Below, one piece after another: positions 12,256-45,657 of a stretch of DNA of 64,000 bases (the stretch's first letter is position 1; the number at the start of each line of letters is the position of its first letter). Origin of the DNA: Rosistilla oblonga. GTDB lineage: Bacteria > Planctomycetota > Planctomycetia > Pirellulales > Pirellulaceae. The DNA is taken from NCBI RefSeq assembly GCF_007751715.1, contig NZ_CP036292.1, forward strand, positions 4,409,339-4,473,338, written 5' to 3'. The notes beneath the pieces were generated by a model. It made no database searches. It had not been told where the DNA came from and saw nothing but the letters and a program-made list of their open reading frames with translations. The translations under genes and the position numbers were made by a program.

Positions 12256-12272
12256 AGCAAGATGTGTGCCAA
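12256..12272 (-). promoter_or_regulatory. Sigma-54-type -24/-12 promoter for the chaperone cluster
   Basis: On the minus strand the sequence reads TTGGCACACATCTTGCT. This matches the sigma-54 consensus YTGGCACG-N4-TTGCW at all but one fixed base, and the GG and GC doublets are exactly 10 bases apart. The predicted start is near 12245, giving a leader of about 170 nt to groEL. No activator site was identified. Confidence 0.6.
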
Positions 12273-12779
12273 ACGCTATTGCTTTATTGTAAAACGCTAT
12301 CATGCAAGGCTTTACGCAACATCGACTCACAGCCGATCAACCCCTTGCGCGACCGCGGTGCCAGTTTGGCAGCGAGCGGAAGGAGCCGGTCAGCGACGTC
12401 GCGGCGGCGTTTATTAACGCTGACAGTCCCCCCCGCTGCCGTGTCGCTTGGACAACCACAGGGCAAATCACTTTTTCAATCAGGAGCGTCTCGGAGAAAT
12501 GGTAACCGATCGATTAGCCAGCGATTCGCGTGGTGCCTCGCTTAAACGCCGGGACGCCAACAAAGCCTAAACTCCAACCGTGATTCGCCCCCGTTGCCAA
12601 CCACCCCATTGTCTACCCTTGTCAGCGGATTCGGGTACATTACAACGACACCCGACGCGGCTTCGGCCAGATCCCGCCCCACGCGGGTGCGCTCATTGGG
12701 CCGCTCGATATCACCGGGACGCTCGCTCGAACGAACACGCTCCCCGATTGGCTCTCCCTTCCCACTGCGATAGGTACTG
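12273..12779. other. Noncoding spacer between groEL and the DUF3467 gene
   Basis: The spacer separates divergent genes. Apart from the sigma-54 element at its left edge, I see one forward promoter-like pair, TTGTCA (12619-12624) and TACAAC (12641-12646), with a 16-bp spacer. It could serve the DUF3467-maf unit, but the leader would be about 125 nt. No RNA gene or convincing short coding frame was found. Confidence 0.4.
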
Positions 12780-13424
12780 ATGAACGATACTCCGTCTGAA
12801 GGTCAGCCCGCACCGGGCGAAAGTGGACAAAACCTGCGAGCCCGAATTCCCGATCACGTTGGCGAAGGGGTCTTTTCGACCGGCGCGATCGTCGTGACAG
12901 GCCCGACCGAGTTTGTCCTCGATTTCGTGCAGAACATCTCGCGGCCGCACCGCGTTGCGACCCGCGTGATCCTGCCCCATCCGGTCCTGCCTCAATTCCT
13001 CGACGCCCTTCGCAAGAACCTCGAAATCTACAAGGGCCGGTTTGGTGCTCCCGCCGATCCGCCCAAGCCGCCCGCCGATGCGCGGCGTCCAACGCCGCAG
13101 GAGATCTACGACGATCTGAAGATGAGCGACGCGATCCTCAGCGGCGCGTATGCCAACGGCGTGATGATCGGTCACGGAGCGGCTGAGTTCAGCCTCGATT
13201 TCATCACCAGCTTCTTCCCTCAGTCGGCGGTCAGCGCCCGCGTCTACATGGCAGCCGGGCAGATCCCGCGGTTGATCGAATCGCTCGACAACGCGATGAA
13301 GCAGCTGCAGATGCGGACCGGCCAACTGCCGCCCCCCAAGCAGAATCCTCCCTCGACACAGTCACCCGGCGACGATCTGTTGCCCCCCAACGAAAACCGC
13401 CCCGATCCCGAAGAACCTTCGTAA
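12780..13424 (+). CDS. DUF3467 protein with two tandem domains
   Basis: 214-aa soluble protein of unknown function. It contains two copies of the ~60-residue DUF3467 fold. Copy one spans about residues 28-85 (GEGVFSTGAIVVTGPTEFVLDF...LPQFLDALRKNL). Copy two spans about 120-175 (SGAYANGVMIGHGAAEFSLDF...IPRLIESLDNAMKQ). Both share the pattern of a small Gly turn, an (A/T)EF.LDF strand, an Arg-Val strand and an amphipathic C-terminal helix. The rest is Pro-rich and probably disordered (after ~185). Most DUF3467 proteins known to me have one copy, so this looks like an internal duplication. maf starts 15 bp downstream, so they likely share a transcript. Confidence 0.75.
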   Translation: MNDTPSEGQPAPGESGQNLRARIPDHVGEGVFSTGAIVVTGPTEFVLDFVQNISRPHRVATRVILPHPVLPQFLDALRKNLEIYKGRFGAPADPPKPPADARRPTPQEIYDDLKMSDAILSGAYANGVMIGHGAAEFSLDFITSFFPQSAVSARVYMAAGQIPRLIESLDNAMKQLQMRTGQLPPPKQNPPSTQSPGDDLLPPNENRPDPEEPS

Positions 13425-13439
13425 CAGAGCAGCCGATCG

Positions 13440-14105
13440 ATGAGTGATACTCCACCGCCGCAGACCGCTTCCTCGCGGATCGTGTTGGCCAGCGGTTCGC
13501 CGCGGCGCCGCGAACTGCTGGAACAAGCTGGATATGCGTTCGACGTGATCCCCGCCGATCCGTCGGTCGAGTGCGGCGTTTGCAGTTCCGAGACGCCGGC
13601 GGAGCTGGTCGCGCGGCACGCGTTTCGCAAAGCCGAAGATGTCAGCCGGCAGATCGATGCGGGAATGGTGATTGCCGCCGATACCGTTGCGGCTTGCCGA
13701 GGCCAGATCCTTGGGAAACCCGAAGATCGCGAACATGCCAGGCAGATGCTGAAGATGTTGGCTGGAACCCAGCACGCCGTCTTCACCGGCGTTTGTTTGT
13801 GGTCGCTGCCGGACCAGAAGGCCAGCCTCGACGTCTGCTGCACACAATTGCAGATGGAAGCGATCGACGACGCCACGATCGAGGCGTATCTGGACAGCGA
13901 CCGTTGGGTCGGCAAAGCGGGTGCGTTTGGCTACCAAGATGGCAACGACTGGCTGCAAATCCTTTCGGGCAGCCCCTCGAATGTCGTCGGTCTGCCGATG
14001 GAGCGGTTGCAGGAGATGTTGGCCAGCTTTGCCGAAACCGCTCAAGCGATCGATGTCTCCGCTCGCCAGGCCCCTCTCGTCGAAATCGACCGCCCCTCGT
14101 CATAA
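13440..14105 (+). CDS. maf: Maf-family nucleoside triphosphate pyrophosphatase
   Basis: House-cleaning enzyme that hydrolyses noncanonical or modified NTPs to NMP and diphosphate; Maf proteins are also linked to septum inhibition. The 221-aa sequence has the family opening IVLASGSPRRRELLEQAG, the AADTV motif with the catalytic Asp (MVIAADTVAA), LGKPEDREHARQML, and WVGKAGAFGYQ near residues 158-168. The last ~25 residues go beyond the usual family end. It lies 15 bp after the DUF3467 gene. Immediately downstream are dispersed repeats and the IS element. Confidence 0.93.
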   Translation: MSDTPPPQTASSRIVLASGSPRRRELLEQAGYAFDVIPADPSVECGVCSSETPAELVARHAFRKAEDVSRQIDAGMVIAADTVAACRGQILGKPEDREHARQMLKMLAGTQHAVFTGVCLWSLPDQKASLDVCCTQLQMEAIDDATIEAYLDSDRWVGKAGAFGYQDGNDWLQILSGSPSNVVGLPMERLQEMLASFAETAQAIDVSARQAPLVEIDRPSS

Positions 14106-14124
14106 GCACGATTCCATAAATACT

Positions 14125-14168
14125 AGCACGAAGCGCCAGCGAGTGAATTTACCAGCACGAAGCGCAAG
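14125..14168. repeat. Palindromic dispersed repeats, left of the IS
   Basis: Two copies of the unit with core GCACGAAGCGCAAGCG. The first (14125-14148) reads GCGCCAGCGAGTGAAT at its right side. The second starts at 14151 with ACCAGCACGAAGCGCAAG and is cut at 14168 by the insertion sequence; its continuation CGAGTGAAT is found at 15696 after the duplicated target. Confidence 0.8.
14161..14168. repeat. Left target-site duplication of the IS
   Basis: AGCGCAAG directly abuts the left inverted repeat and is repeated at 15688-15695 directly after the right inverted repeat. Confidence 0.85.
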
Positions 14169-14182
14169 TTTTGATGTTGCGC
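14169..14182 (+). repeat. IS left terminal inverted repeat
   Basis: TTTTGATGTTGCGC, identical in reverse complement to 15674-15687. Confidence 0.9.
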
Positions 14183-14197
14183 CGATGGATGCTTTGA

Positions 14198-15577
14198 TCA
14201 GGCGACGCACCGGTATTCCTGGGATAAAAGCTCAGTGTAGCGTTTCCTCAGTGTGCGGAGGCCGTGGTTGGTTTTTAGCCGTCGCAGATGCCACTGGTGC
14301 TCGCGATAGCGAATGCCTAACAGCAACGCCTCGCGGACGGTGTAGCTGCGAGCGTGCTTCCAGCATTTGCGCTGCCGATCGTCGATTCGGCGATCGGCCA
14401 GTTTGCGGCGACGAGTCCATTCCAGATAGCAGAACGTGATCAGCACGATCCCCATCCAGCTCTCGACCGCCTCGAAATCTTTGAAGCTGTACTGGTTCAT
14501 TCCCAGCGTGCTCTTGAGTTCTTTGAAGAACAACTCGATCTGCCAACGTAGACTGTACAGCTCACACACCTGCCGAGCCGACAAGTGCTTTGCATTGGTC
14601 ATCAACAACTTCGTCCCTTCACGTTGAATCTTTTTGCCAATCGGCTTACTCGAGGAAAAGACGAGCATGACCTTGCCCACATTGTGGACCTCGCTTCTCT
14701 CGCTGTGGACGTGATACGTCCGAGTTGACTTCGTCCCGTCGCGGCGGCGTGCCGTTCGATGGCAGGAGGCTCGACGCTGAGCAGCGTAAGGCCCCGCACC
14801 GATCGAAAGACGAATGGTTTGGAAACGTGATGCAGGAAGTTGTTCGATTCGCAAACTCACACGAGGCCGCTTGCCGTGCTTCTTTGCAGAGAAGACGCGA
14901 TTGGTGTTGACCGGAACGATCCAGAAATAGCCTCGCTCCTGGCAAGCCGCACGCACGCATTTCGCGTCAAATGCGGTGTCTCCGAGCACAATCAGTTCGA
15001 TGCCAGCGGGTACCTGCGCGTCGCAAATCAACTGCGCCGCAAGCTGCGCCTGCGTCCGATGTTTGATCTTGTGGACCTTCGCATAAGGCTTGGTGTAGTA
15101 GGGCAGCCACATCGGTACTCGCAATCCGTCAGGAGTCAGCAGCAATGCGAACACGAAACAGTGGCAACTCTTTCGTTGATACTTGTACTTGGTGTAGCGG
15201 CGATTCTTGGCCGGTCGTCGCTTGGAGTTACCGGTGCTGAAGGTGTTTTCGACGGTCTGCCCGGCAGTGGCGACGAGCGTTGAATCGAGCAGCAGGAGAT
15301 AGCGGCCGTTCCAATCCTGATCACGAAGCATCTTTAGGGTGATCGCCGTGAGCAAATCGGCGATAGCCTGCCGGTACCGTTTAAGGAAGCGTCCGGGTTG
15401 TGCCCGATGCCGCGGTTTTCCCTCGATGGCGGAGGCAGCAGACATGCACGAGTTTCGACCGTGCCGCGTAAGAATAGCGATCAAGAATCGCAGCAGCATG
15501 CTTCGAAAGTGAGCAGAACCCTGCGTGTTCGGCAGAAACGACTTGATTGCGGGGAGGGAATCTTCCATGATTGCCAT
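14198..15577 (-). CDS. IS4-family DDE transposase
   Basis: 459-aa transposase that would cut and paste the surrounding element. Catalytic residues fit the IS4 DDE pattern: Asp98 in LLLLDSTLVATAG, Asp200 in IVLGDTAFDAKC and Glu348. The IS4 signature Y-(2)-R-(3)-E-(6)-K is exact: Tyr341, Arg344, Glu348, Lys355 in YSLRWQIELFFKELK. The C-terminus is strongly basic, with many Arg and Lys. No frameshift or premature stop is seen, so it may be active. An internal ATG (MEDSLPA, residue 4) is an alternative start. It is read on the minus strand, against maf and the SNF2 gene. Confidence 0.93.
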   Translation of the reverse strand: MAIMEDSLPAIKSFLPNTQGSAHFRSMLLRFLIAILTRHGRNSCMSAASAIEGKPRHRAQPGRFLKRYRQAIADLLTAITLKMLRDQDWNGRYLLLLDSTLVATAGQTVENTFSTGNSKRRPAKNRRYTKYKYQRKSCHCFVFALLLTPDGLRVPMWLPYYTKPYAKVHKIKHRTQAQLAAQLICDAQVPAGIELIVLGDTAFDAKCVRAACQERGYFWIVPVNTNRVFSAKKHGKRPRVSLRIEQLPASRFQTIRLSIGAGPYAAQRRASCHRTARRRDGTKSTRTYHVHSERSEVHNVGKVMLVFSSSKPIGKKIQREGTKLLMTNAKHLSARQVCELYSLRWQIELFFKELKSTLGMNQYSFKDFEAVESWMGIVLITFCYLEWTRRRKLADRRIDDRQRKCWKHARSYTVREALLLGIRYREHQWHLRRLKTNHGLRTLRKRYTELLSQEYRCVA

Positions 15578-15673
15578 CGGTGAGCTCCTGGGCTTTGTTT
15601 GTGTGGTAACTCACAAACTCAGGATGTCTCACCTCTTTCTGCAATACCAATTCTCGCTAGCAACCCCATCAAC

Positions 15674-15687
15674 GCGCAACATCAAAA
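15674..15687 (-). repeat. IS right terminal inverted repeat
   Basis: GCGCAACATCAAAA, the exact reverse complement of the left end. Confidence 0.9.
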
Positions 15688-15695
15688 AGCGCAAG
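15688..15695. repeat. Right target-site duplication of the IS
   Basis: AGCGCAAG, matching 14161-14168. Removing the IS and one copy restores a complete palindromic repeat. Confidence 0.85.
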
Positions 15696-16047
15696 CGAGT
15701 GAATCCCGGCACGCTCACTCGCTTGCGCTTCGTGCTGGTATCTCGCGCGGCGGGTGGGTAAGGGCTTCAGTCGCGGGCGCTGGAGCGATATATTGAGAGG
15801 CTTGTCACAATTGCTCCCAGGCTGGGAACCTATCGATCGTTCCGCGGGTTGCGTGAGTAACACCAACACGCATCGCAAGCGAACCAATTACCAGCACGAC
15901 GCGCAAGCGAGTGAATAAATACCGGCACGACGCGCAAGCGAGTGGATGAATACCAACACGCCCCGCAAGCGAGTGGATTCTTCACGCTCACTCGTTTGCG
16001 TTTCGTGCTCGTAATGTTGTTTTCACTCGCTTGCGCTTCGTGCTAGT
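15696..16047. repeat. Cluster of palindromic dispersed repeats, right of the IS
   Basis: Copies of the unit with core CGCTTGCGCTTCGTGC in both orientations. Inverted: 15717-15740, 15990-16009 and 16025-16047. Forward: 15890-15916, 15921-15946, 15952-15979 and a degenerate one at 15862-15889. Forward and inverted copies can pair into long hairpins, for example 15952-15979 with 15983-16009. Spacing is irregular and there are no unique spacers of constant length, so this is not a CRISPR array. Confidence 0.8.
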
Positions 16048-16240
16048 AACGCGTGCTCGTTAGAATTCCCCAGCCGCTCCCGCAACCGCCAGGGCAGCTC
16101 CGTTTTTGATTCCGGGACATGGATAACGTCCGCGGCGCGACGTCGCGTCGGTTCGTCTGCCGCATCGGCGAACGACCTGTCGCCCCCCGCGTCTCTTCAA
16201 AACCGAAGTCGCACTGCCAAAACAGAAAGGCGTCTGTTCG
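15741..16240. other. Spacer between the IS and the SNF2 gene
   Basis: The 500 bp hold the repeats listed above between 15862 and 16047. The flanking stretches 15741-15861 and 16048-16240 show no recognisable gene, RNA or strong promoter. The GAAAGG before the SNF2 start is a plausible ribosome-binding site. Confidence 0.5.
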
Positions 16241-19200
16241 ATGGCTTATAACAAACGCGGACGCACTCCTCGCGGTTCGACGTCGCCCAGTGCCACCTCG
16301 ATGCTAAAACAGATTCTGGGCGAAGCGTCCGTCCCGTTTGGTGCCCCGCGTCCAAGGCAATGGCCGCAGGCCGATCCCAATTCGACCGATCCGCTGGTGA
16401 AGCGAGGCATCGAGCGCGTTCGCGCTTGGTACGAAGCCTGCCTCAATATTCTCGATTCGTTTCCCGATAGCATCACCGATTCGGACAGCTACGAATCGCC
16501 ACACGCCTTTTTTGTCTCGGCGGTCTATCCCGACGGAACCGTCACCGGGCAATACCGCAAAGGGCCAGAGCGGCACGATGTGATGCTGGCGATCCCCGAT
16601 GGCAGCGCCCGAAAACGAATCGCCTGCAGCTGCAACGTCTCGTTGGGCAAAGAATACTGCGAACACACCTTCCATTTTGTCGACTACGTCTACGAACAAT
16701 TGCGAGACACCCGCAGTTGGTTGAACCGACAGGTTGCCCAAGGTCTGTTTACGGCGGGGAGCTTCGATCCCAAGAGCTTTGATTTCGGCAGCCGAGCGCG
16801 GATCGAACGCATACTCGAAGACCTGCCGATCGCCCCGCCCGACTTGGATCTCGAAGACGCCGAACTGCCACCATCGCGGTCGGTGTCGCAGGATCGCATC
16901 GCATGGAATCTCTCGACGCGTGGGACCGATCACGAGATCCTGGCGATCCATCAGCAGGCGAAGAAACGTGGCAACGGCTGGACCAAGGGACGCCGCGTAT
17001 CGGTCTCGACGCTCAACGTTCTCGAGGTCACGCTCAGCGAAGCCGACCGCCGCGTCCAGTCGCTGGTGCAAATCGATTCGAGTTATTATCGCGTCAGCAC
17101 GAAACTGGACACCATCGCGGTACTTCGCGAATTGATCGGCCAGCCGAACGTGTTGTTCAACATGCACCCCGCCGAGGTCGTCCGCTTCGACGCCACCTTC
17201 CAATTCTGCCGCGACGACAAGCAGTGTTGGTTGGAATTGGTCGGCAGCAAGCCGCACAACAACACGTTCTTGTATAACGAGGACTGCTTGATCCATATCC
17301 GCAACGACTTGGCCAGCATTCGCATCTGCGAACTGCACCCGAGCCAGATGAAGACGGTCGTCGCGGTCCTCAAGCTGCCGCGGATTCCCGTCGAATTCGA
17401 ACAGGATCTGTTGAAGCGCGTTGCCGATCTGCAGCGTGTGATCAACGTGAAGGTCCCCGAATCGGTCGCCGGCCAGATCATTCCCGACACGTGTCGCCCC
17501 GTCGTCTTGTTGCGTTCACACACCACCGGATCGCTCGACTTCGGCGTCCGCGTTCGCGACGCGATGGATGTCCTGCATCGCCCCGGCACCGGGTTGATGC
17601 TGAAAGCTGGAAAGCTCGAGGGCCGGCCTGTGCAATTCCAACGCGATGCGGACGAAGAGATCCGCGAGTCGGATGCTCTGCTGGGCAAATTGGGGCAGAA
17701 ACCGGGAGAGTTTGACGGCAGCATCAGCGACTTTGAAGCGGCGATCGGGCTGGTCGGATCCCTGCAAGATCTCGAATCGACGGGGATCGAGGTGCTGTGG
17801 GACAAATCGTCCGAAAAGCCGCTGCGAGTTCTGGGATCGGTCACGACCAGCAACGTCAGCGTCGGTATCAACCGCAAGCACGATTGGTTTCAACTGTCGG
17901 GCAACTGCGATCTCGGCGAGGAATCGGTCCCGTTGTCCGAACTGCTCAACGCCCTCCAGAACCCTGGAGAGGAGAGCGTCCGGGGCGACTTTGTCCGGAT
18001 CGGTGACAAGGGCTGGACGAAGATCGAAAAGGGCTTGCGAGCTAAATTGACGGGACTTCGCGATTCGGTCACGCAGGATCGCAAGGGGCTGAAGTTCGAC
18101 GCCACGTCCGCTTCGGCTGTGCGTGATTTCTTGAGCAACGATGTGCAAGTCGAAGCGACGCGTGCCTGGCATCAGTGCCTGACGCGATTGGAACGAGCCG
18201 AAAAACTCGAGCCCGTCCTGCCGGCCGGACTCAACGCGACGCTCCGCGACTACCAGACCGATGGCTTTCGCTGGCTGCGACGGCTGGCCGAATGGGGCGT
18301 CGGCGGGATCCTCGCCGACGACATGGGATTGGGCAAGACGCTGCAGACGCTGGCGGTGATCTTGGATCGCAGCAGCGAGGGACCGACGCTGGTGATCGCG
18401 CCCACATCGGTCGGGTTCAACTGGGTTCGCGAAGCCGAACGGTTTGCGCCCGACTTGAGCGTCCATCTTTACCGCGATACCGACCGCAGCGAGTTCTTGT
18501 CGACAGTGGGTCCCGGCAGTTTAGTCGTCTGCAGCTACGGTCTGGCGCTGCGAGATGCGGACGCATTAGCTGACGTGAAGTGGTCGACGTTGGTCCTGGA
18601 CGAGGCTCAAGCGATCAAGAACAGCCGCAGCAAAACATCGGCTGCGATCGCATCGATCCCCGCGCAGTGGAAGGTCGCGCTGACGGGCACGCCGGTCGAA
18701 AATCATCTGGGCGAACTGTGGAGTTTATTCCACGTGATCTCGCCGGGCGTCTTTGGCGGTTGGGATCAATTCCGCAAACGCTTCGCCGGACCGATCGAAA
18801 AAGACAACGACGAATCGCGACGCCTGGCGTTGCGAGACCGCTTGCAACCGTTTGTGCTCCGCCGCACCAAGACCGAGGTCCTCAAAGACCTGCCGCCACG
18901 TTCGGACATGAACCTGTATGTCGAACTGACAGCGACCGAACGGATGATGTACGACAAGGTGCGAGCGTCGGCGCTGGGCGAGATCGACCAGATCGCTAAT
19001 ATTGGCGATGTCAAAGACCAACGCTTCAAGATCCTGGCCCTGCTGACGCGGTTGCGGCAGATCGCTTGCAGCCCGCGGATGGTCGATGAATCCTTCTCGC
19101 AGCGATCGTCTAAATTGCAGTTGTTGCAAGAGACGGTGGCGGAGCTGAAAGAGGAGGGGCATCGCGTGCTGATCTTCAGCCAATTCGTGAAGCACCTGAC

Positions 19201-29096: not shown

Positions 29097-29113
29097 CGGG
29101 CACGACGCTTGCA
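29097..29113 (+). promoter_or_regulatory. Sigma-54-like element upstream of the 29178 gene
   Basis: CGGGCACGACGCTTGCA has GGCACG-N4-TTGCA with GG and GC 10 bases apart; the two bases before GG differ from consensus. It is 65 bp upstream of the start codon. Confidence 0.4.
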
Positions 29114-29177: not shown

Positions 29178-30398
29178 ATGCTCCACAGCCCTGCTGCGAC
29201 GCCATCCGCCGACGGACTGATCGAGATCGGCGTGATCATCGCGGGGCCGTTGGACGATGTCGACCGGCAGAGCGCGTCGCGGGCAATCGAACAGACGCGT
29301 CGCGATCTCAGCGAGATGATGCCGGAGTTTCGCTTCCGTATGCTGCAGAGTCGCCGTCCGGAACTGGCCAGCGAAGGGAGGACGCAGCCTAGCGTTTTGC
29401 TTCAGCAAGCCGCCGAAGAACGAGACGCCCGGCACTGGGACTTTGTCATCGTCTGCACCGCCTCGGACCTCGTCGGCAACTACGCTCCCTTCTGCTTCGC
29501 CGCCCTCTCCCGCCCGCTGGATGCCGCGGTGATCTCCCTCTCGTTGATCGATCCCCCAGCGATTCACGACAACGCGGAAACGAAAGCTCGGATCCGCGTG
29601 ATCGCTCATCGAACCAGCCGCTTGATGCTGCACGCGATCGGCCATTTGAACGGGCTCAGCGGCCAGGAATCGCCGCAGAATCTGATGTTTCGTCCCGCCA
29701 CCGCGGAAGAGATCGATGCGATGCAAGAGCTCGAACCGCCGCAGATCGACGCGATGCACGACGCGATGGCCGAGATCGCCGACCAACGACTCGAAGAGAG
29801 CACCAGTCGCCCGGCGAGCCGATTTGCTTTTTTGGTCCGCGCCGCTTGGATCAACCGACGCGAGATCGCTCAAGCGGTGATCGGAGCCCGGCCGTGGCAG
29901 TTCCCACGCCATTTGAGTCGCCTGACGATCGCTGCGGTCTCGACAGTTGCGATCCTCCTGATGACCGCCGAAGCATGGGATCTTGGGCTCTCGCAAACCG
30001 CGGGCGAAGTCGCGACGCTCGCTTTGGCCAGCTTGATTCTTACCACGATCTACGTCGTCTTCCGCCAGCAATTACTGGTCCGTCGCGGACGCCAGCACAC
30101 CGAACAAACCGTCGTCACGTCGACCTCGGCGTTGGCGATCGTGCTGTTGGGAATGTCGGTCACCTGGATCGTGCTGATGGTGATCGGCGTCAGTTTTTCC
30201 TGGCTCCTCTTCGATGGCGACCTGATCGCCGCATGGGCCGGTTCCAACGAAATACAAGCTGGCGAAATCGGCCTGGCGACGTTTGTACGCATGTCTGGCT
30301 TTAGCGCTTCGCTGGGGCTGTTGATCGGAGCGTTGGGAGCCAGCTTTGAATCGCAGCATTACTTCCGCCACATCATTTTCGTCGACGAAGAGATTTAA
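29178..30398 (+). CDS. Membrane protein with degenerate zincin motif (HAIGH)
   Basis: 406-aa protein of unknown function. Residues ~10-145 form a soluble alpha/beta-looking domain (IEIGVIIAGPLDDVDRQSAS, then WDFVIVCTASDL). Near residues 155-167 is LMLHAIGHLNGLSG. This resembles the zincin helix HExGHxxGL of archaemetzincin-like peptidases but has Ala where the catalytic Glu should be. The C-terminal half has four hydrophobic segments (about 250-270, 275-297, 315-345, 375-395) after an amphipathic linker. The start at 29178 (MLHSPAATP) has an AGGA nearby; a longer in-frame start at 29067 would add a basic, non-conserved stretch. It may be a sensor or a pseudo-peptidase. Confidence 0.6.
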   Translation: MLHSPAATPSADGLIEIGVIIAGPLDDVDRQSASRAIEQTRRDLSEMMPEFRFRMLQSRRPELASEGRTQPSVLLQQAAEERDARHWDFVIVCTASDLVGNYAPFCFAALSRPLDAAVISLSLIDPPAIHDNAETKARIRVIAHRTSRLMLHAIGHLNGLSGQESPQNLMFRPATAEEIDAMQELEPPQIDAMHDAMAEIADQRLEESTSRPASRFAFLVRAAWINRREIAQAVIGARPWQFPRHLSRLTIAAVSTVAILLMTAEAWDLGLSQTAGEVATLALASLILTTIYVVFRQQLLVRRGRQHTEQTVVTSTSALAIVLLGMSVTWIVLMVIGVSFSWLLFDGDLIAAWAGSNEIQAGEIGLATFVRMSGFSASLGLLIGALGASFESQHYFRHIIFVDEEI

Positions 30399-30562: not shown

Positions 30563-30769
30563 ATGCAATTTCATCCATGGCAATCCGTAGCCATCGCCCC
30601 GCTTTTGCTCTGCCTTTGCGGTTGCGACGGCAACGTTGAAACAACCGACGACGCGACGCGGATCGAAGCGGAGATTCCCAAGCTGGAGATCGGTGACCAG
30701 CCGCTCGACCTTCAATCCTCGACCGACGGCGACGTCGATATCGACACGCCTCTCCCCGGCGATTCGTGA
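30563..30769 (+). CDS. Small predicted lipoprotein heading the oxidase operon
   Basis: 68-aa protein with a signal peptide (MQFHPWQSVAIAPLLLCLCGC) and a lipobox-like LCGC, Cys21 being the likely lipidated residue. The mature ~48 residues are acidic (Asp/Glu-rich) with no recognised domain. AGGA lies about 8 bases before the start. It is 66 bp upstream of coxB and directly downstream of a sigma-54-like element, so it is probably the first gene of the oxidase operon. Its function is unknown; it could be a small exported assembly or binding factor. Confidence 0.6.
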   Translation: MQFHPWQSVAIAPLLLCLCGCDGNVETTDDATRIEAEIPKLEIGDQPLDLQSSTDGDVDIDTPLPGDS

Positions 30770-34314: not shown

Positions 34315-34322
34315 GGTGACTG

Positions 34323-36546: not shown

Positions 36547-36563
36547 GCGGCACACCAATTGCG
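36547..36563 (+). promoter_or_regulatory. Possible sigma-54 element before the PerM-like gene
   Basis: GCGGCACACCAATTGCG has GGCAC-N5-TTGC with exact spacing but lacks the usual YT before GG. It is 155 bp upstream of the chosen start. Confidence 0.3.
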
Positions 36564-36717
36564 TTGATCGATGCATTGGCGGAACCGATGTTTCGCCAAC
36601 CGCGTTACCGGCGTGGATGAGCGAGGATCGAGCCGTTTGGTAGAAATACGATCAATCTCTTCTGCGGACGCGACACGCGGATCGTCGTTCTCTCGATCGC
36701 GGTCGATACCAAAAACA

Positions 36718-37864: not shown

Positions 37865-37881
37865 TTGGCATGCCAGTTGCG
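37865..37881 (+). promoter_or_regulatory. Sigma-54-type promoter before the epimerase gene
   Basis: TTGGCATGCCAGTTGCG has TTGGCA-N6-TTGC and exact GG-N10-GC spacing. It is nearly identical to the element before the oxidase operon. The expected start near 37892 leaves a ~54-nt leader. Confidence 0.6.
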
Positions 37882-37945
37882 ACGTTTGTTGGTGAAATCA
37901 AAAGCTCATCAACATCCGTTTCCCTTCAACGACTGGAGTCATCCC

Positions 37946-39001: not shown

Positions 39002-39099
39002 CGAGTTCGAAAAACTGCGGACAAACCTATTCCCGGCAAACTGTCGACCATGCGAACAACCGCACCAATCGTGAAACGAGTCACCCCAAAGAGCCCTCG

Positions 39100-39735
39100 A
39101 TGTTTTTAAAAGCCACAGTCCCCTGCCACGACATCGATCGGCCCGTGCCGCCGTACAAGCACAATCCGTCGGCTTGGTCTCAACGGATTCCGATCTGTCT
39201 GCTGGCTTTTGTCGCCGCCGGGATCTCGGTCCATCTGTCCCTGTTTCAGTGGGGACTGATCGAATCGGTCTGGGATCCGGTCTTTGGTGACGGCTCGGAC
39301 AAAGTTTTAAAGTCGGATGCGGCGCTGAAAATGTATGGAATCCTGGGGATTCACGACGCCGCGTTGGGAGTGCTCGCCTACCTGGGCGATGCGGTCCTTG
39401 GACTCGCCGGTTCGGCACGCCGTTGGCAGTATCGGCCCTGGTTAGTGGTCCTCTTTGGAATCGATGTGATTCCACTGGGAATCGTCAGTGTCATTTTGGT
39501 GGCGGTCCAAGGACTGGTTGTTGGATCGTGGTGCTTCCTCTGTTTGATGACCGCTCTAATCTCCTTGATCCTGGTCTACTGGGCGTGGGACGAAGTGCGA
39601 GTTGCGTTGACGTATCTGTGGATCGTTTGGAAACAGAATCGCGACCGCCGGCTACTGTGGGATGCCTTTTGTGGCAATCGCAGCGAACCGTTGGATCGCG
39701 CTGCCGAAAGCCTTCTAACCCGAGAGGTAAAGTGA
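39100..39735 (+). CDS. Vitamin K epoxide reductase (VKOR)-like membrane protein
   Basis: 211-aa protein with four to five transmembrane helices. The VKOR active-site CxxC is present as [12 protein letters not shown] (Cys145, Cys148), next to a quinone-binding membrane site. VKORs recycle disulphide-forming enzymes by passing electrons to quinone. The loop after the first helix reads [17 protein letters not shown], and the pair of shuttle cysteines found in typical VKORs is absent. No thioredoxin-like partner is encoded next to it. It overlaps the next small membrane gene (TGATG at 39733-39737). Confidence 0.8.
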
Positions 39736-40082
39736 TGTGGGGACGAGTCGTCGAAATTATGACCGCGGCCTGGATGGTATTCAGCCCATTCATCTTCGCG
39801 GGCGATCACAGCGAAACACTGCTGATTCTGAATTCATTCACCGCCTTGTTGATCGCGTCGCTAGCAGCCCTCTCCTACTGGCCGCCGACACGTTACGCGC
39901 ACTTGGGAATCCTGATCGTCGCAACCGGGATGTTGATCTGGGGCCGATTCGCCGAACTCCCTCCGCCCCCCTTTCAACAGAACTACATCGTTGTCGGATT
40001 GTTTCTGATGATGATCGCGATCATTCCCAACGAAGCTTCCGACCCACCGCGGGTGTGGCGGAAAGAGGTCGATCACGCGTGA
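39735..40082 (+). CDS. Small three-helix membrane protein
   Basis: 115-aa protein with three hydrophobic segments (about 7-24, 30-47, 56-73) and a fourth weaker one near 86-97. The first carries MVFSPFIFAGD, reminiscent of the SPW-repeat family, but the match is partial. Its ATG overlaps the VKOR-like stop, so the two are probably translated together and may form one membrane unit. Function unknown. Confidence 0.65.
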   Translation: MWGRVVEIMTAAWMVFSPFIFAGDHSETLLILNSFTALLIASLAALSYWPPTRYAHLGILIVATGMLIWGRFAELPPPPFQQNYIVVGLFLMMIAIIPNEASDPPRVWRKEVDHA

Positions 40083-40124
40083 GCGCTCGCGAGCGCGAGC
40101 GGTAAACACGATGGCTCACCTCGT

Positions 40125-41717
40125 TCAACCGCTCGCCAGGTGGTCGTCGGTTTGGCTGGGCGAAGCGAGGCGTTCGAGCTGGATGTCGGAAACTCGCAGC
40201 TCCGCGGTTTCCAGATAGACTCCCAGATGGCCTTTCGAAAACGTCTGATCGGCTAGCGACAAGACGACTCTGCCATTGATCGACAGCTCGATATAGCTGC
40301 CGAAGACGATCAACTGGACCTCGGCTTCGGTTCGGATCTCCGAATACCAAAACCCCGTTTGCAGCGGCCGGAACTGCATCATGTGCTCACCGCTGCCAGC
40401 TTCGCCCGTCCCCCAAGCACGCAGTTGGGCGACTTCTTTGAGCATATCGAGCGACAGATAATATCCGTCTCGCGTCTCCTGATCAGCCCGGAAAACCAAG
40501 CCACATTTGCCGACGCCCTTCATCTGCAGCATCGCTTGAAAGCGGAAGTGGTCGAGCGTCTCATCGAAGACAAACGCCTGGAATCCGCTGTCGCACGCGA
40601 GGTCCAGATGGCCGCCATCGACGCGGCAATATTCGACCCGCGGTCCGGCGTCGTCTACCAAGCTGTGGATGCACCGCGAATCGACCGGTTCGCGAACGTA
40701 AGCGTCGATCCCTTCGAACGTCACCGCCCGCAACATCCCTTCGCCATTCTTGACCAAGCGTTTCGGCGGCGGCATCAAATTCTCCGCCGTCCGATCGCCG
40801 ATATCCATTGAATAGAAATTCCACAACAGCCAGCCCTTGTCGTCGCGACAAACGCGGCCGGCGTAATTCCCTTGAGCCAACAAAACGTTGTCGTGGTAGC
40901 TGAGCCACGAATCGCCGATCTTCTTGGTGTGCCAATAGCGGATCTTGGCGTCCTCGCGGATGCTGCCGATCAAATAGTGGTCGTCGTCGACGCAGATCGC
41001 GTTGGGGACTTCGATGTCGTCGTACAACCGCGGATGGTGCAGTGGCGGTTGAGCGACAAAACGATTCGGTTCGACTTCCTTCATGAGCGCCACGCAACCG
41101 CGGCGAACGATCGGCCCGGTGTTGATCCGCCCGGCCGCTAACAACCATCCCGCCTTGCCGTCGTGGTAATAAAACGGATCGCGGAAACTGATCCAGTGCC
41201 GCCCTTCATCCAACGACGACTCGTAGTACTTAGGATCGGGCTCCAGCGGAAAACAGCTCTCCGCGTCGAACGTCGCATGCCGCGCATCGGCCTCCTGCGA
41301 ACGACTCTCTCGCACCGCCTGCTTCACCCGTTCGGGATCTCGCGGACCGCGATGGTCTTGCCAATGGACCGGCGTCTTCTTCCAACGGTACAGATCGTCG
41401 CTGACCGCCATCCCCAAGCGTTGGTACTTTCCCTGATCGCGCCGCGACAACCCGGTGTAAAACATCCGCCACGATCCCGGTTTGTGCGGATCGGGAGAGA
41501 TGTGCATCGTCCACAACATCAGGTCGTCCCAGCTGCCGGGGTCGCCGATGAAGAGCGCATTGTTCACGCGTCGCCAATTGATCGCGTCGGTGCTGACCGC
41601 GTGCGCGATAAAATCGTGATTGGGCAACACGAGGTGGAACAAATGATAAAGGCCGTCGTGAAACAGAACGTCCACATCGCCAATCGTTTTGCGGCTGCCA
41701 TCGGTTTCTGCAAACAT
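40125..41717 (-). CDS. Glycoside hydrolase family 32-like protein
   Basis: 530-aa protein with a five-bladed propeller of the GH32/GH68/GH43 type, followed by a C-terminal beta-sandwich. Candidate catalytic motifs are [10 protein letters not shown] near residues 12-21 (nucleophile-like Asp), [10 protein letters not shown] near 175-185 (the RDP motif) and [10 protein letters not shown] near 237-246 (acid/base Glu). Residues ~360-520 form the lectin-like C-terminal module. There is no obvious signal peptide with the start at 41717 (MFAETDGSR). It likely acts on a fructoside or related sugar, but the substrate cannot be read from sequence. It converges on the small membrane gene and is divergent from the MDR gene. 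Confidence 0.75.
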
Positions 41718-41803
41718 TGCTACTCTTCGGTTCAGATTAGTTCGAGGCGGGCATGACGAGGCGTCAGCGGCCGGAATCGGCCCTGGATCGCTGCATTGCA
41801 ACG

Positions 41804-41820
41804 ATCGGCACGCGGTTTGC
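41804..41820 (+). promoter_or_regulatory. Sigma-54-like element before the MDR oxidoreductase
   Basis: TCGGCACGCGGTTTGCC contains GGCACG-N4-TTGC with exact spacing; the base before GG is C instead of T. It lies 84 bp upstream of the start codon. Confidence 0.45.
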
Positions 41821-41903
41821 CGCTCGTCTACCGTAGCGGCTCGCCGCTGTCACAGCAATTTGCAGCCGCCCCTTGGCAGGCCCACTTTTACAGGAAACCA
41901 TCG

Positions 41904-42902
41904 ATGTCTACTCAATATAGGGAAGCCGACGCAACCGCCAGCGAGCGTCCAATCGGCCAAACGATGCAGGCGATCGTCTACGACGACTATGGCGAAGCCG
42001 ACGTTTTGCATCGCGCCGAGCTACCGATTCCGCGGCGATTACCGGGGCAATTGCTGCTGTCGGTGGCAGCATCCAGCGTCAATCCGATCGATTACCGATT
42101 GCGACGCGGCGAGATGAAAGGGTTGTTGCCTTTCGGCTTTCCACGCATTCCCGGCTACGACATCGCCGGCACCGTTGCCGATTGTGCTCCCGACGCCCCG
42201 TTCAAACCGGGCGATCGCGTGATCGCGTATCTCGACTACATCCGCGGCGGTGCCTGCGCCGACTTTGCTGCCTGTTCGGTTGGCGTCGCCGCCCGAATCC
42301 CCGACACGCTGCCGACCGAAGAAGCCGCAGCGATCCCCTTGGCGGGGACGACCGCCCTGCAATCGCTCCGCGACCACGGCAAGATCCGAGCGGGGCAACG
42401 CGTTTTGATCAACGGAGCCAGCGGTGGCGTGGGGATGTTTGCGGTGCAAGTTGCCAAGTCGTACGACTGCCACGTCACGGCCATCGCCAGCGGCGCCAAC
42501 GAAGACTTCTGCCGCGAACTGGGGGCGGACGTCTTTTACGACTACAACAAAGTCGACTTTACCAAGGCCGGCGAGCGGTGGGATCTGATCTTCGATGCGG
42601 CCGGCAAATCGGGCTATCTCGAAGCCCGTGCGGTCCTGACCGATTCGGGCCGCTTCGTGTCGACCGAACCGGACGTCCAGGGAATCATGATGTCGCTGTT
42701 GACGACGCCGCTGTCGAAGCGGGGCAAAGTGATGCTCGCCAAACCGTGCGGTGACGATCTGCGAGCCCTGATCGGTCTGTACGAACTGGGCAAGCTGAAG
42801 ATCACGCTCGACAGTCAGTTCCCGATGAGCGAAACCGCCGCCGCGCACCGCCGCATCGAACAGGGAGTCGATCGGGGCAAAGTTGTCCTGATAAACAGCT
42901 AG
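41904..42902 (+). CDS. Zinc-independent MDR oxidoreductase (quinone reductase-like)
   Basis: 332-aa member of the medium-chain dehydrogenase/reductase superfamily, quinone oxidoreductase branch, using NAD(P)H. The GroES-like N-domain (MQAIVYDDYGEADVLH...PGQLLLSVAASSVNPIDY) lacks the zinc-binding cysteines of alcohol dehydrogenases. The Rossmann part has INGASGGVGMFAVQVAK with the AxxGxxG loop. AGGAAA precedes the ATG at 41904 (MSTQYREAD); a second ATG at residue 20 (MQAIVYDDYG) matches the family start but has a weaker ribosome site. Probably a stress- or redox-related reductase. Confidence 0.87.
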   Translation: MSTQYREADATASERPIGQTMQAIVYDDYGEADVLHRAELPIPRRLPGQLLLSVAASSVNPIDYRLRRGEMKGLLPFGFPRIPGYDIAGTVADCAPDAPFKPGDRVIAYLDYIRGGACADFAACSVGVAARIPDTLPTEEAAAIPLAGTTALQSLRDHGKIRAGQRVLINGASGGVGMFAVQVAKSYDCHVTAIASGANEDFCRELGADVFYDYNKVDFTKAGERWDLIFDAAGKSGYLEARAVLTDSGRFVSTEPDVQGIMMSLLTTPLSKRGKVMLAKPCGDDLRALIGLYELGKLKITLDSQFPMSETAAAHRRIEQGVDRGKVVLINS

Positions 42903-43010
42903 CCGTCCTCGATGGGAGTCCGCCGCGCGGCTGGCGGCTTGGGCTCCAAGCTGCTTCGTTTGCAACCAGCCCCGCCGCGAATATCGGCTAGCATCCCGAA
43001 GAACGTCGCC

Positions 43011-43027
43011 TTGGCACGCGATCTGCT
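43011..43027 (+). promoter_or_regulatory. Sigma-54-type promoter before the DJ-1/PfpI gene
   Basis: TTGGCACGCGATCTGCT fits YTGGCACG-N4-TTGCW with one substitution (CTGC for TTGC) and exact GG-N10-GC spacing. The start codon is about 50 bp downstream. Confidence 0.55.
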
Positions 43028-43075
43028 TCTCCATTCTCTGAACGAACCTTCACTCAGATAAATATGGAGAATCAA

Positions 43076-43642
<567 letters not shown>

Positions 43643-43665
43643 TTCCTGGCGTCGCCAGCCGCTGC

Positions 43666-43692
43666 ATCGCATCGTCGCAGTGGCGATGCGAT
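43666..43692 (+). other. Hairpin between the DJ-1 and PPOX genes
   Basis: ATCGCATCG (43666-43674) pairs with CGATGCGAT (43684-43692), a 9-bp perfect stem and 9-nt loop. No T-run follows. It may tune the ratio of the two messages. Confidence 0.45.
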
Positions 43693-43730
43693 CGCCTCCG
43701 CCCTCCCTAAAAACGAAAGGTGCAATCACC

Positions 43731-44213
43731 ATGGATACTCAACAAAAACTGATCGATCTTGTCAAAGAATTCGACAACGCGATGCTAGTCACTCGCAGCA
43801 ACGATCGCACGCTCGACGCCCGTCCGATGGCGATCGCCGAAGTCGAAGAGGATGGCCAAATCTGGTTCGTCACCGACCGCAACTCGGGCAAAGTTGCCGA
43901 CCTGATGCTAGACGTCGAGGTCGCGGTGACGATGCAGAGCGGCCACAAGTTCGTCTCGATCTCCGGGACCGCGGAAGCTGTCGACGATCGGGCGAAGCTG
44001 AACGAACTGTGGAAAGAGGCTTGGAAGGTCTGGTTCCCCGAAGGGAAGGCGAGCCAAGCGATCGTGCTGTTACGCATCAAGCCGCTGCACGGCCAGTACT
44101 GGGACAACTCCGGCTTGCAAGGCGTCTCCTATCTGATCAAAGCTGGCAAGGCTTACCTACAAGGGAAGCGTCCCGAGACCGATGAAGCAACCAACGCGTA
44201 CGTCCCGCTATAG
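43731..44213 (+). CDS. Pyridoxamine 5'-phosphate oxidase-fold protein (general stress protein 26-like)
   Basis: 160-aa split-barrel flavin-binding protein. The pattern MDTQQKLIDLVKEFDNAMLVTRS..., RPMAIAEVEEDGQIWFVTDRNSGK and FVSISGTAEAVDDRAKLNELWKEAWKVWFPEGK is that of the GS26/YzzA group rather than true PdxH. Members bind FMN or FAD and are induced by stress. The start at 43731 has AAGG 10 bases upstream. It lies downstream of the DJ-1-like gene and is probably co-expressed. Confidence 0.86.
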   Translation: MDTQQKLIDLVKEFDNAMLVTRSNDRTLDARPMAIAEVEEDGQIWFVTDRNSGKVADLMLDVEVAVTMQSGHKFVSISGTAEAVDDRAKLNELWKEAWKVWFPEGKASQAIVLLRIKPLHGQYWDNSGLQGVSYLIKAGKAYLQGKRPETDEATNAYVPL

Positions 44214-44353
44214 ACGACGCTCCACAATCGGAGTCACCAGACTTCGAAACGACTCTTCATTGCGGGTGACCTGCGGATTCAATCGCTCACCGGCACGAAA
44301 CAGAGCGACGTCAACATTTAGAATGTCTTTACTCTCAGGCGAATTAGCCGGCA

Positions 44354-44839
44354 CTAGTCCAGCTTCTTCGCTTTCTTACGATGGAAGTGGCGAGCGATCC
44401 GATCTTCCACAAAACCAAGCACGACCAGCACCACCGCAGCACAGGCGGTCAGAATCAATGCAAGCGACACGCGGCCGACTGCGGTAGCGACGCCGATGCC
44501 AGCGGTCAGATAGATCGTCGCCGCCGTCGTTAGACCTTCGACGCCCTCCCGCTTTTGATGGACGATCGTGCCGGCGCCAAGGAAGCTGATCCCCACGACG
44601 ATCGCCTGCAGAATACGAATCGGATCGGCTTTCAGAAGGGCATCCTTTTCGTGCTGAGCGAATTGGTCGACGATCTCCTGCCCCAGGATCATCATCAACG
44701 CCGATCCTGCGCTGACGAAGATATGCGTGCGAATACCAGCCGGTTTGCCAGCGATCTCACGCTCGATTCCCAACACCGCGCCACAGGCGGCAGCGATCGC
44801 GATCGTTTGTAGATTTTGAACGTCAAGCTCTTGCAACAT
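44354..44839 (-). CDS. MgtC/SapB family membrane protein
   Basis: 161-aa inner-membrane protein. It has the MgtC signature region: AACGAVLGIEREIAGKPAGIRTH near residues 17-39 and FLGAGTIVHQKREGVEGLTTAATIYLTAGIG near 85-115, with four to five transmembrane helices and a basic tail (FHRKKAKK). The longer C-terminal soluble domain of Salmonella MgtC is missing. Family members relate to Mg2+ limitation and ATP synthase control; the role here is inferred only from family. It converges on the PPOX gene with a 140-bp gap that shows no terminator. Confidence 0.9.
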   Translation of the reverse strand: MLQELDVQNLQTIAIAAACGAVLGIEREIAGKPAGIRTHIFVSAGSALMMILGQEIVDQFAQHEKDALLKADPIRILQAIVVGISFLGAGTIVHQKREGVEGLTTAATIYLTAGIGVATAVGRVSLALILTACAAVVLVVLGFVEDRIARHFHRKKAKKLD

Positions 44840-44973
44840 TTTTGACTCGGCACAACGACGCGTTAAAGGATCTTTCCAAACCAGGCGTGAAGCCGCGCTG
44901 ATCCGCTTTGCCCAACTAACGCTATTTTACGACGGCGCCAGATGCAGAACCAATCAGGCGCTGAATGATCGAA

Positions 44974-45008
44974 CGAGAAAAGCCGGTCCCCACGCGAGCG
45001 AACCGGCT
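44974..45008 (-). terminator. Terminator-like hairpin after the TIGR03067 gene
   Basis: AGCCGGT (44981-44987) pairs with ACCGGCT (45002-45008); TTTCTC follows on the minus strand. The stem is 7 bp with a 14-nt loop, 34 bp after the gene's stop. Confidence 0.5.
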
Positions 45009-45042
45009 GATTTGAAGTCACACAAAGAGGCGACGGCGGCAT

Positions 45043-45594
45043 CTACTTCGTCTTGCTCGCCGAACGACCATCGGGAACGGGATCGCCCTGCCGTCGCACT
45101 AGATGAAACAACATCACCTTGCTCCCCTCGGGCGATTCAAATTTCGTGGGGCGATCGTTTCCAGGCAACGCATAACAGAGCGACCATTTGTCATCTCCCT
45201 GGAATTTGAGGATCCCCGCGGCGACGATGTCTTCCGTCGGAACCTTCAAGTCGCGTTTGGCGACCGTCGATTTCTGCGGCACCGAAGTCATGTTGATCTG
45301 AATCGGATCCTCAGCCGAATCGATACTGAAGACGGCGCGAAACCGCTGGTGCTCGTTGCGATCATAAGTCGTGATCGTGTTCGTCGCGACAGTGTTGTAG
45401 GTTCCCTTGAGTTCCGCTTCGGACAGTTCGCGGCCTTGGTTCGCGCCTCCGACAACCTCCCATCGACCCTGCAACCGCTGCATCACGGAGTCGTTTAGTT
45501 TGGCATCCTTCTTCCCGTCGTCAGCCAATGCGATCGGCGAACATGTGGCGAGAAGGGTCAGGGCTGTGAGACGGGCAATAAATCGCGTTGACAT
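45043..45594 (-). CDS. Secreted TIGR03067-domain protein
   Basis: 183-aa protein with a clear signal peptide (MSTRFIARLTALTLLATCSPIALADD, cleavage near 24). It then has the planctomycete TIGR03067 pattern: LQGRWEVVGGANQGRELSEAELKG, DRNEHQRFRAVFSIDSAEDP..INMT and GILKFQGDDKWSLCYALPGNDRPTKFES. The domain is a lipocalin-like beta structure, common in planctomycetes and of unknown function. A sigma-54-like element lies about 45 bp upstream and a terminator-like hairpin downstream, so it is probably a single-gene unit. Confidence 0.85.
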   Translation of the reverse strand: MSTRFIARLTALTLLATCSPIALADDGKKDAKLNDSVMQRLQGRWEVVGGANQGRELSEAELKGTYNTVATNTITTYDRNEHQRFRAVFSIDSAEDPIQINMTSVPQKSTVAKRDLKVPTEDIVAAGILKFQGDDKWSLCYALPGNDRPTKFESPEGSKVMLFHLVRRQGDPVPDGRSASKTK

Positions 45595-45640
45595 CGGTAG
45601 GCTCCAGTTCGAGTAAGTGAATTGAGATCTTCACTACCGA

Positions 45641-45657
45641 TGCACGTTCTGTGCCCA
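45641..45657 (-). promoter_or_regulatory. Possible sigma-54 element before the TIGR03067 gene
   Basis: On the minus strand: TGGGCACAGAACGTGCA, with GGCAC-N5-GTGCA and exact GG-N10-GC spacing. The G in place of T before TGC is a mismatch. Confidence 0.35.

What the first reader, a model, noticed from the sequence alone, without database searches (positions are those of the whole stretch)
12256..45657. A sigma-54-like -24/-12 element recurs upstream of eight transcription units
Elements with GG and GC exactly 10 bases apart and GGCA core lie in the coding orientation upstream of: the groEL cluster (12256-12272, TTGGCACACATCTTGCT), the membrane pseudo-zincin gene (29097), the oxidase operon (30496, TTGGCATGCTGATTGCA), the PerM-like gene (36547), epimerase/VKOR (37865, TTGGCATGCCAGTTGCG), the MDR oxidoreductase (41804), DJ-1/PPOX (43011, TTGGCACGCGATCTGCT) and TIGR03067 (45641, minus). 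The pattern TTGGCA-N6-TTGC alone is expected about 0.1 times in both strands of 64 kb at equal base use, yet three exact copies are in intergenic, promoter-proximal positions. The downstream genes are stress, redox and respiratory functions, so this may be an undescribed sigma-54 regulon.
Basis: partly seen in the sequence, partly recalled or inferred. Interest (0 to 1): 0.8.

Follow-up and report, generated by a model that had tools for sequence, protein, structure and literature searches.

The report
Sigma-54 heat-shock promoter in planctomycetes
A promoter signal that needs an activator protein to fire sits in front of the main heat-shock chaperone genes of this planctomycete and of most of the planctomycetes examined, together with extra control sites, which suggests that this phylum switches on its heat-shock genes in a different way from textbook bacteria.

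Summary
In detail: all eight elements exist, and in this genome GG-N10-GC elements are enriched mainly at spacer 6 and upstream of genes. RpoN with all three domains and 18 strong activator domains are encoded. Support is uneven: groEL outstanding; epimerase/VKOR, DJ-1 and oxidase good; 29097, PerM, MDR and TIGR03067 weak.

The element before groEL2-groES-groEL1-dnaJ-grpE recurs in 25 of 25 genomes of the order, usually about 100 bp downstream of a palindrome, TGYCA-N3-TGRCA (20 of 25), often with a second dyad (17 of 25, not this genome) and a downstream half-site (22 of 25). A separate groES-groEL operon shows the layout less completely. HrcA is missing from 147 of 148 planctomycete genomes; CIRCE was in no planctomycete groEL promoter scanned. 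Two genomes without rpoN lack element and palindrome at the 4 groEL upstream regions scanned.

Sigma-54 control of chaperones in Planctomycetota was predicted in 2025 (PMC12316311), so the regulon is not wholly undescribed; I found no report of the enhancer layout or HrcA replacement. Nothing here is tested by expression.

The parts
12256..12272 (-). -24/-12 element TTGGCACACATCTTGCT of the groEL2 cluster (predicted start near 12246, leader about 169 nt)
   Evidence: score 19.65; element present in 25 of 25 order genomes
12359..12371 (.). palindrome TGCCAAACTGGCA (read on minus), candidate enhancer site, 99 bp upstream of the element
   Evidence: TGYCA-N3-TGRCA in 20 of 25 groEL2 and 15 of 21 groEL3 promoters; 13 sites in the whole genome, of which 2 are the two groEL promoters
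12289..12315 (-). inverted repeat GTAAA-N17-TTTAC at the place where relatives have YAAGTY-N13-RACTTR; this genome's own promoter does not reach 9 of 12 for that dyad
   Evidence: the left half GCGTAAAGCCTT is kept in all three genus members
12226..12231 (-). downstream half-site CTGCCA, about 15 nt after the predicted start
   Evidence: half-site of this kind in 22 of 25 order groEL2 promoters; null 1.3%; 1 of 33 other own promoters
10362..12077 (-). groEL2 (divergent chaperonin, GTG start at 12077)
   Evidence: PF00118
9954..10250 (-). groES
   Evidence: PF00166
9788..9804 (-). internal element GTGGCAAAGCAATTGCT before groEL1
   Evidence: score 14.8; same in G002; no palindrome
8185..9762 (-). 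groEL1
   Evidence: PF00118
6944..8086 (-). dnaJ
   Evidence: PF01556/PF00226
6239..6817 (-). grpE
   Evidence: PF01025
30496..30512 (+). element TTGGCATGCTGATTGCA before a small lipoprotein-like reading frame (30563-30769, my reading) and the COX2-COX1/3 oxidase operon
   Evidence: score 19.75; in G001 a different element, CTGGCACATCGATTGCA, lies 144 bp before cox2
37865..37881 (+). element TTGGCATGCCAGTTGCG before NAD-dependent epimerase and VKOR genes
   Evidence: score 16.75; 14.2 or more in G001, G002, G012, G014; 11.4, 10.8 and 8.6 in G020, G037 and G032
43011..43027 (+). element TTGGCACGCGATCTGCT before DJ-1/PfpI and pyridoxamine-oxidase-like genes
   Evidence: score 17.9; 14.7 or more in G001, G002, G050; 11.2 in G014; none in G012, G020, G039, G044
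29097..29113 (+). weak element CGGGCACGACGCTTGCA before gene 29178-30398
   Evidence: score 13.1; kept in G002, about 93% identical there; 10.7 in a 52% relative in G001
41805..41821 (+). weak element TCGGCACGCGGTTTGCC before zinc-type dehydrogenase
   Evidence: score 13.45; conservation uninformative, G002 is 99.6% identical here
36547..36563 (+). doubtful element GCGGCACACCAATTGCG before AI-2E/PerM-like gene
   Evidence: score 10.1; predicted start at 36573 lies 2 bases inside the 416-aa frame
   Evidence: score 11.2; no Pfam match to the gene; conservation not tested

Best explanation
The stronger GG-N10-GC elements are sigma-54 promoters, used widely in this planctomycete for scattered stress, redox and respiratory genes. 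The best supported drives the groEL2-groES-groEL1-dnaJ-grpE cluster. There, an AAA+ enhancer-binding protein, not yet identified, most likely binds the palindrome TGCCAAAWTGGCA about 100 bp upstream, loops to RpoN-RNA polymerase held at -24/-12, and opens it under protein-folding stress. In many relatives a second dyad at a fixed distance from -24, and in the order a half-copy of the palindrome just after the start, probably tune or restrain the promoter. Shown: the elements, their enrichment, conservation, rpoN and activator genes, and lack of HrcA and CIRCE. Inferred: that RpoN binds, that the palindrome is the enhancer, that stress is the signal, and that the cluster is one transcription unit.
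For: Spacer-specific enrichment upstream of genes. RpoN with AID, core-binding and DNA-binding domains and an ARRTVTKYRKKM box; 18 strong activator domains. groEL2 element in 25 of 25 order genomes, 21 at score >=15, against 0.009 expected at >=15 per 520 bp in relatives. The separate groES-groEL operon has a hit >=14 in 17 of 21 loci and >=11 in all 21. Beyond the order: 18 of 19 planctomycete-labelled groEL loci at >=11, 9 of them >=15, against 4 and 2 of 61 others; 21 of 25 rpoN-bearing phylum genomes have an element >=10 before at least one groEL locus. The two rpoN-less genomes show neither element nor palindrome at 4 groEL upstream regions. Palindrome 86-169 bp upstream of the groEL2 element in 20 of 25, against 0.04% expected; two palindromes exactly 41 bp apart in L207, L212, L288, L289, L290. 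In L287 three palindromes lie between groEL2 and a divergent Clp-family (Clp_N + AAA) gene with its own score-20.4 element. HrcA in 1 of 148 genomes, weakly. Passages of PMC2754498: R. baltica heat shock induces Cpn60 RB8966, Cpn10 RB8969, GroEL RB8970, DnaJ RB8972, GrpE RB8974.
Against: No transcript ends, binding or mutant data. Four rpoN-bearing genomes (G060, G069, G089, G105) have no element >=10 before either of the two groEL loci scanned in each. Half of the planctomycete-labelled hits score only 11.1-12.5, where chance gives about one in thirteen per locus. Five of 25 groEL2 and 6 of 21 groEL3 promoters lack the exact palindrome. The palindrome, dyad and half-site were read off the order's sequences and then counted there; loci outside the order are the semi-independent test, and there the palindrome holds (in right order with an element in 11 of 19 labelled loci, and beside an element in 14 of 24 phylum genomes), the dyad partly (9 of 19 and 3 of 12) and the half-site hardly (1 of 19 and 4 of 18). 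Neither of this genome's own groEL promoters passes the dyad test. The activator was not identified: none of the 18 activator genes has the palindrome within its 3.5-kb stretch and one has an element >=11 within 300 bp upstream. Exact TTGGCA-N6-TTGC is not enriched in every planctomycete genome (e.g. G077 20 against 25). PMC2754498 reports that rpoN itself was not seen to be regulated on heat shock.
Confidence: 0.77

Rival explanations
1. The palindrome is an operator for a repressor that loops between the upstream palindrome and the downstream half-site, with sigma-54 or another factor giving basal transcription; heat releases the repressor, as HrcA does elsewhere.
For: A half-copy of the palindrome recurs just after the predicted start in 22 of 25 groEL2 promoters of the order, a typical repressor position; the dyad of many relatives keeps a fixed place.
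Against: The downstream half-site is nearly absent outside the order (1 of 19 phylum loci, 4 of 18 named loci), whereas palindrome plus -24/-12 persists. Palindrome distance varies (86-169 bp) and it is sometimes paired at 41 bp, as enhancers do. A sigma-54 promoter needs an activator anyway (established knowledge).
Confidence: 0.15
2. The elements are chance matches or binding sites of an unrelated factor, and groEL is read from a sigma-70-type promoter.
For: Weak elements (36547, 45641) score within background; four rpoN-bearing genomes show no groEL element at the loci scanned.
Against: Spacer-specific enrichment, conservation in the order, and absence in the two genomes without rpoN.
Confidence: 0.06
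3. One single stress regulon under one activator covers all window elements.
For: Several downstream genes are stress- and redox-like; window upstream regions are about five times richer in elements than the genome sample (P 0.001, on a window picked for this feature).
Against: Only the groEL2 element has the palindrome within 300 bp; DJ-1, oxidase and epimerase elements differ in phylogenetic spread.
Confidence: 0.06

Closest known systems
Sigma-54 (RpoN) promoters with NtrC-family enhancer-binding proteins
   Same: -24 GG / -12 GC geometry, RpoN with all domains, many AAA+ activators, palindromic upstream site at variable distance
   Different: targets are the core heat-shock chaperones; an extra fixed dyad and a downstream half-site in many relatives; activator unknown
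Predicted sigma-54 regulon of Planctomycetota (PMC12316311, PLoS One 2025; listing and passages seen)
   Same: predicts enrichment of GroEL, GroES, GrpE, DnaJ, DnaK, Usp and COG3385 transposase groups under sigma-54 in Planctomycetia
   Different: class-level statistics from matrices; the terms UAS, upstream activat, palindrom, CIRCE and HrcA do not occur in its main text
HrcA/CIRCE control of groESL
   Same: controls the same operon in many phyla (27 of 61 non-planctomycete loci had CIRCE within 4 mismatches)
   Different: HrcA in 1 of 148 planctomycete genomes; CIRCE in 0 of 19 planctomycete-labelled loci and 0 of 46 order loci, 0 of 28 phylum loci scored and 0 of 9 further stretches

Membership tests
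Sigma-54-dependent promoter | GG and GC doublets separated by 10 bases in a TGGCA-N6-TTGC context | tested here: met
Sigma-54-dependent promoter | upstream, coding-strand position, not equally frequent in genes | tested here: met
   12.2 against 0.35 per 100 kb at score >=14 in the 400-kb sample
Sigma-54-dependent promoter | genome encodes RpoN and activators | tested here: met
Sigma-54-dependent promoter | transcription starts about 12 nt after GC and is lost in an rpoN mutant | not testable with these tools
   needs RNA and a mutant; the rpoN-less draft genomes G126 and G136 (90 and 96% complete) lack the element at 4 groEL upstream regions
Sigma-54-dependent promoter | upstream activator site bound by an activator | tested here: inconclusive
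   groEL2 and groEL3 only: conserved palindrome in 20 of 25 and 15 of 21; not found at the other eight window elements; binding not shown
HrcA/CIRCE heat-shock control | hrcA gene and CIRCE repeat before groESL | tested here: not met

The most novel reading that the evidence does not exclude
Planctomycetota control their core heat-shock chaperones (the groEL2 cluster, a second groESL, at least once a Clp-family gene) by a dedicated enhancer and sigma-54, in place of HrcA/CIRCE. An undiscovered enhancer-binding protein reads folding stress, and the promoter has a conserved layout: palindrome, often a fixed dyad, -24/-12, and in one order a downstream half-site. This would be an ATP-driven, activator-dependent heat-shock switch for most of a phylum.
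Probability: 0.5. Interest if true: 0.82.

Novelty: new variant of a known kind. Interest (0 to 1): 0.66.

Why it matters
How planctomycetes sense heat is open: R. baltica induces chaperones without the expected sigma factor genes responding, and the authors speak of a 'significantly different response cascade' (PMC2754498, passage). The sites found here name DNA targets that can be mutated or used as bait to find the regulator. If right, most of a phylum uses an activator-gated sigma factor for a response that elsewhere commonly depends on a sigma-70-family factor or a repressor.

Tried and rejected
One regulon for all eight elements: rejected, because the groEL palindrome is not at the others. 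CIRCE/HrcA as the groEL control: rejected. Counting raw genome matches as promoters: corrected, because 17 copies of TTGGCACGGTATTTGC stand 45 bp before a 474-aa transposase and 8 copies of TTGGCACTGAATTTGC stand 893 bp before a fragment with a marginal transposase match. My note gave rough early counts, about 20 and 9; use 17 and 8. Genome-wide palindrome list: 13 sites, not above the reversed-pattern control (13 against 15 per strand). Beside the two groEL promoters only weak or misplaced pairings with an element were seen (L310, L312, L316 before a thioredoxin gene, L317, L320), so no wider regulon is claimed. Finding the activator by palindromes near the 18 activator genes: nothing; Pfam was run on 10 of the 18. 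A conserved 5' leader hairpin: noticed, not tested.

Dropped or partial rows: L140 and L170 (close kin) were left out only. L304 and L307 gave no chaperonin motif and were not scored there; G066 (L304) was scored afterwards. In one search, 30 of the listed groEL matches became loci; mostly one locus per genome was scored, and one search added a second locus for G060, G069, G076 and G105. groEL3 upstream stretches were fetched for 20 loci of 19 relatives plus the own locus; those of G005, G008, G010, G026 and G031 were not fetched. In the groEL3 scan the whole 1.8-kb stretch was searched, where chance gives about 0.18 hits >=11 per stretch (rate). Gene starts come from a home-made caller and are approximate. 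The sigma-54 matrix and the CIRCE consensus were typed from recall.
Full report
Setting. The window is G000:C1:4409339-4473338 of a 7.25-Mb one-contig genome; the window is 58.7% GC. It is planctomycete-like: the best named groEL2 relative outside its own records is Blastopirellula marina, 77%. The species was not established. 'Order' and 'phylum' are the tool's kinship labels.

Observation. Every element is present. Exact TTGGCA-N6-TTGC is found 4 times (0.20 expected), one of them inside a gene. The decisive control is the spacer test: upstream of genes on the coding strand, spacer 6 gives 7 hits in the window against 0-2 for nine other spacers, and 16 in a 400-kb genome sample against 1-9. 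Spacer 6 is also slightly the highest for other intergenic DNA (33 against 15-29) and gene-antisense (44 against 15-43) in the sample, and for gene-sense in the window (11 against 4-9); gene-sense in the sample is ordinary (35 against 19-41). With the recalled-consensus matrix, hits >=14 in the sample are 6 upstream, 6 other intergenic and 2 in genes. In the window 8 of 24 hits >=10 are upstream, where 6.3% of the space lies (P 7e-5); 30496 was not counted among the 8, since the next called gene is 324 bp away. The window's upstream regions are denser than the sample's (P 0.001), but the window was chosen for this feature.

Strength of each element. Oxidase 19.75, groEL2 19.65, DJ-1 17.9, epimerase 16.75, internal groEL1 14.8, MDR 13.45, 29097 13.1, TIGR03067 11.2, PerM 10.1. 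Conservation: epimerase has hits >=14.2 in G001, G002, G012 and G014, and weak ones in G020, G032 and G037. DJ-1 has hits >=14.7 in G001, G002 and G050, 11.2 in G014, none in G012, G020, G039 and G044. In G001 its upstream DNA no longer aligns by blastn while the element stays at -62. The oxidase element is identical in G002; in G001 a different element stands closer to cox2; of ten more distant loci one (L114) has a strong hit (17.0), two weak ones, seven none. PerM, MDR and 29097 could be checked only in closely similar DNA (88-99.6% identical), apart from a 52% relative of the 29097 gene in G001 with a weak hit (10.7) and a 40% PerM relative in G012 with none. TIGR03067 was not tested. For PerM the predicted start is 2 bases inside the 416-aa frame.

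groEL2 cluster. groEL2-groES-groEL1-dnaJ-grpE is preceded by the element in 25 of 25 genomes examined (own included), 21 at score >=15; the low ones are G025 9.8, G028 12.6, G033 9.9 and G031 12.8. Background in relatives' 20-kb stretches is 0.009 hits >=15 and 0.053 hits >=11 per 520 bp. A second, unlinked groES-groEL operon has a hit >=11 in all 21 loci examined, 17 of them at >=14; in two of the 21 no groES motif was recognised.

Control sites. Upstream of these elements lies TGYCA-N3-TGRCA: 20 of 25 groEL2 and 15 of 21 groEL3 promoters within 200 bp, against 0.04% expected. In three genus members the stretch between it and -24 has diverged while CTGCCAAACTGGCA, GCGTAAAGCCTT and the element (one change) stay. 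In five of the six distant loci with more than one palindrome, two are exactly 41 bp apart. A second dyad, YAAGTY-N13-RACTTR, sits about 42 bp before the element: scores >=9 of 12 at -45..-39 in 17 of 25 groEL2, 9 of 21 groEL3, 9 of 19 phylum and 3 of 12 planctomycete-labelled loci, against 4% in random DNA and 1 of 35 own-genome elements. Both own groEL promoters are among the 34 that fail; the own groEL2 promoter has GTAAA-N17-TTTAC there instead. A half-palindrome (CTGCCA or close variants) lies 28-33 bases after TTGC in 22 of 25 groEL2 promoters; in groEL3 the opposite arm is at 38-41 in 12 of 21; 1 of 33 other own promoters has it. This last site is nearly confined to the order (1 of 19 and 4 of 18 elsewhere). 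These motifs were read off the order's sequences, so counts there are partly circular; the loci outside the order are the fairer test.

Breadth. Of 19 planctomycete-labelled groEL loci 18 have an element >=11 (9 of them >=15, the other 9 between 11.1 and 12.5) and 11 also the palindrome in the right order. Of 61 other loci 4 have an element >=11 (2 >=15), 1 has both in order (L267, Puniceicoccales), and 27 have CIRCE. Of 25 further rpoN-bearing phylum genomes, 19 of 24 scored first have an element >=10 (14 of them with the palindrome). A second locus, or for G066 the first one scored, raised this to 21 of 25, through G076 (18.4) and G066 (12.9), both without a palindrome. G060, G069, G089 and G105 show none at the two loci scanned in each; G089 has a palindrome only. 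The two rpoN-less genomes (146 of 148 have rpoN; both are drafts) have neither element nor palindrome at 4 groEL upstream regions, two in each; the gap before the second groEL of each pair was not scanned. HrcA: 1 of 148, weak. In L287 a Clp-family gene diverges from groEL2 across three shared palindromes, with its own element of score 20.4.

Other genome targets. The next genes after exact-match intergenic sites include glutamate dehydrogenase, a protein with two Usp matches, Hva1_TUDOR, CHAD, TM2, RDD, BrkB-like, GreA, a DUF1559 pilin-like protein, a sucrose-synthase-like glycosyltransferase and DabA. Of 32 distinct intergenic sites outside the window, 7 had no gene called downstream, and the next genes of 19 of the other 25 were run against Pfam, so this is not a full regulon list.

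Literature. PMC12316311 (listing and passages) already predicts sigma-54 control of GroEL, GroES, GrpE, DnaJ, DnaK, Usp and COG3385 in Planctomycetia; it names Bacteroides and Flavobacterium chaperone promoters as sigma-54-dependent and warns about repeats for transposases. PMC2754498 (passages) reports heat induction of what looks, by its gene order, like the same cluster in R. baltica and no change of rpoN. Studholme and Dixon 2004 was seen only as a citation. Searches for sigma-54, sigma54 with groEL, RpoN, enhancer-binding proteins, HrcA and heat shock together with planctomycete terms gave no listed title about these enhancer sites or HrcA loss. Only three papers were fetched (PMC12316311, PMC2754498, PMC8215388), and of these only passages were read.

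Verdict. A real observation, mostly right about sigma-54, too broad about one regulon, and partly anticipated in print. The new part is the groEL promoter layout and its coincidence with the absence of HrcA and CIRCE.

Noticed in passing
G000:C1, e.g. L001 1501-1516 and 16 further places: A Tn5/IS4-type transposase gene in 17 copies carries a strong sigma-54-like element 45 bp before its start, so the insertion sequence may depend on the host's sigma-54; PMC12316311 also flags COG3385 transposases in Planctomycetia.
   Followed up: partly
L007 1501-1516 and 7 further places: A second repeated sequence with TTGGCACTGAATTTGC stands 893 bp before a fragment with a marginal transposase match.
   Followed up: no
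window 12224-12240: Just after the predicted groEL2 start, AGTGGC-N5-GCCACT can fold as a hairpin in the leader, conserved in the three genus members.
   Followed up: no
window 30563-30769: Small lipoprotein-like reading frame (my reading) between the oxidase element and cox2; 99% identical in G002, not found in the G001 stretch.
   Followed up: partly
L316 1501-1513: One of the 13 genomic palindromes (TGCCAAATTGACA) lies about 125 bp before a thioredoxin gene, without a good element between them; a sigma-54 promoter was proposed for R. baltica thioredoxin RB10378 (PMC2754498 passage).
   Followed up: partly
L267 1520-1640: A Puniceicoccales (Verrucomicrobiota) groESL promoter has the same palindrome 99 bp before a strong element.
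   Followed up: no
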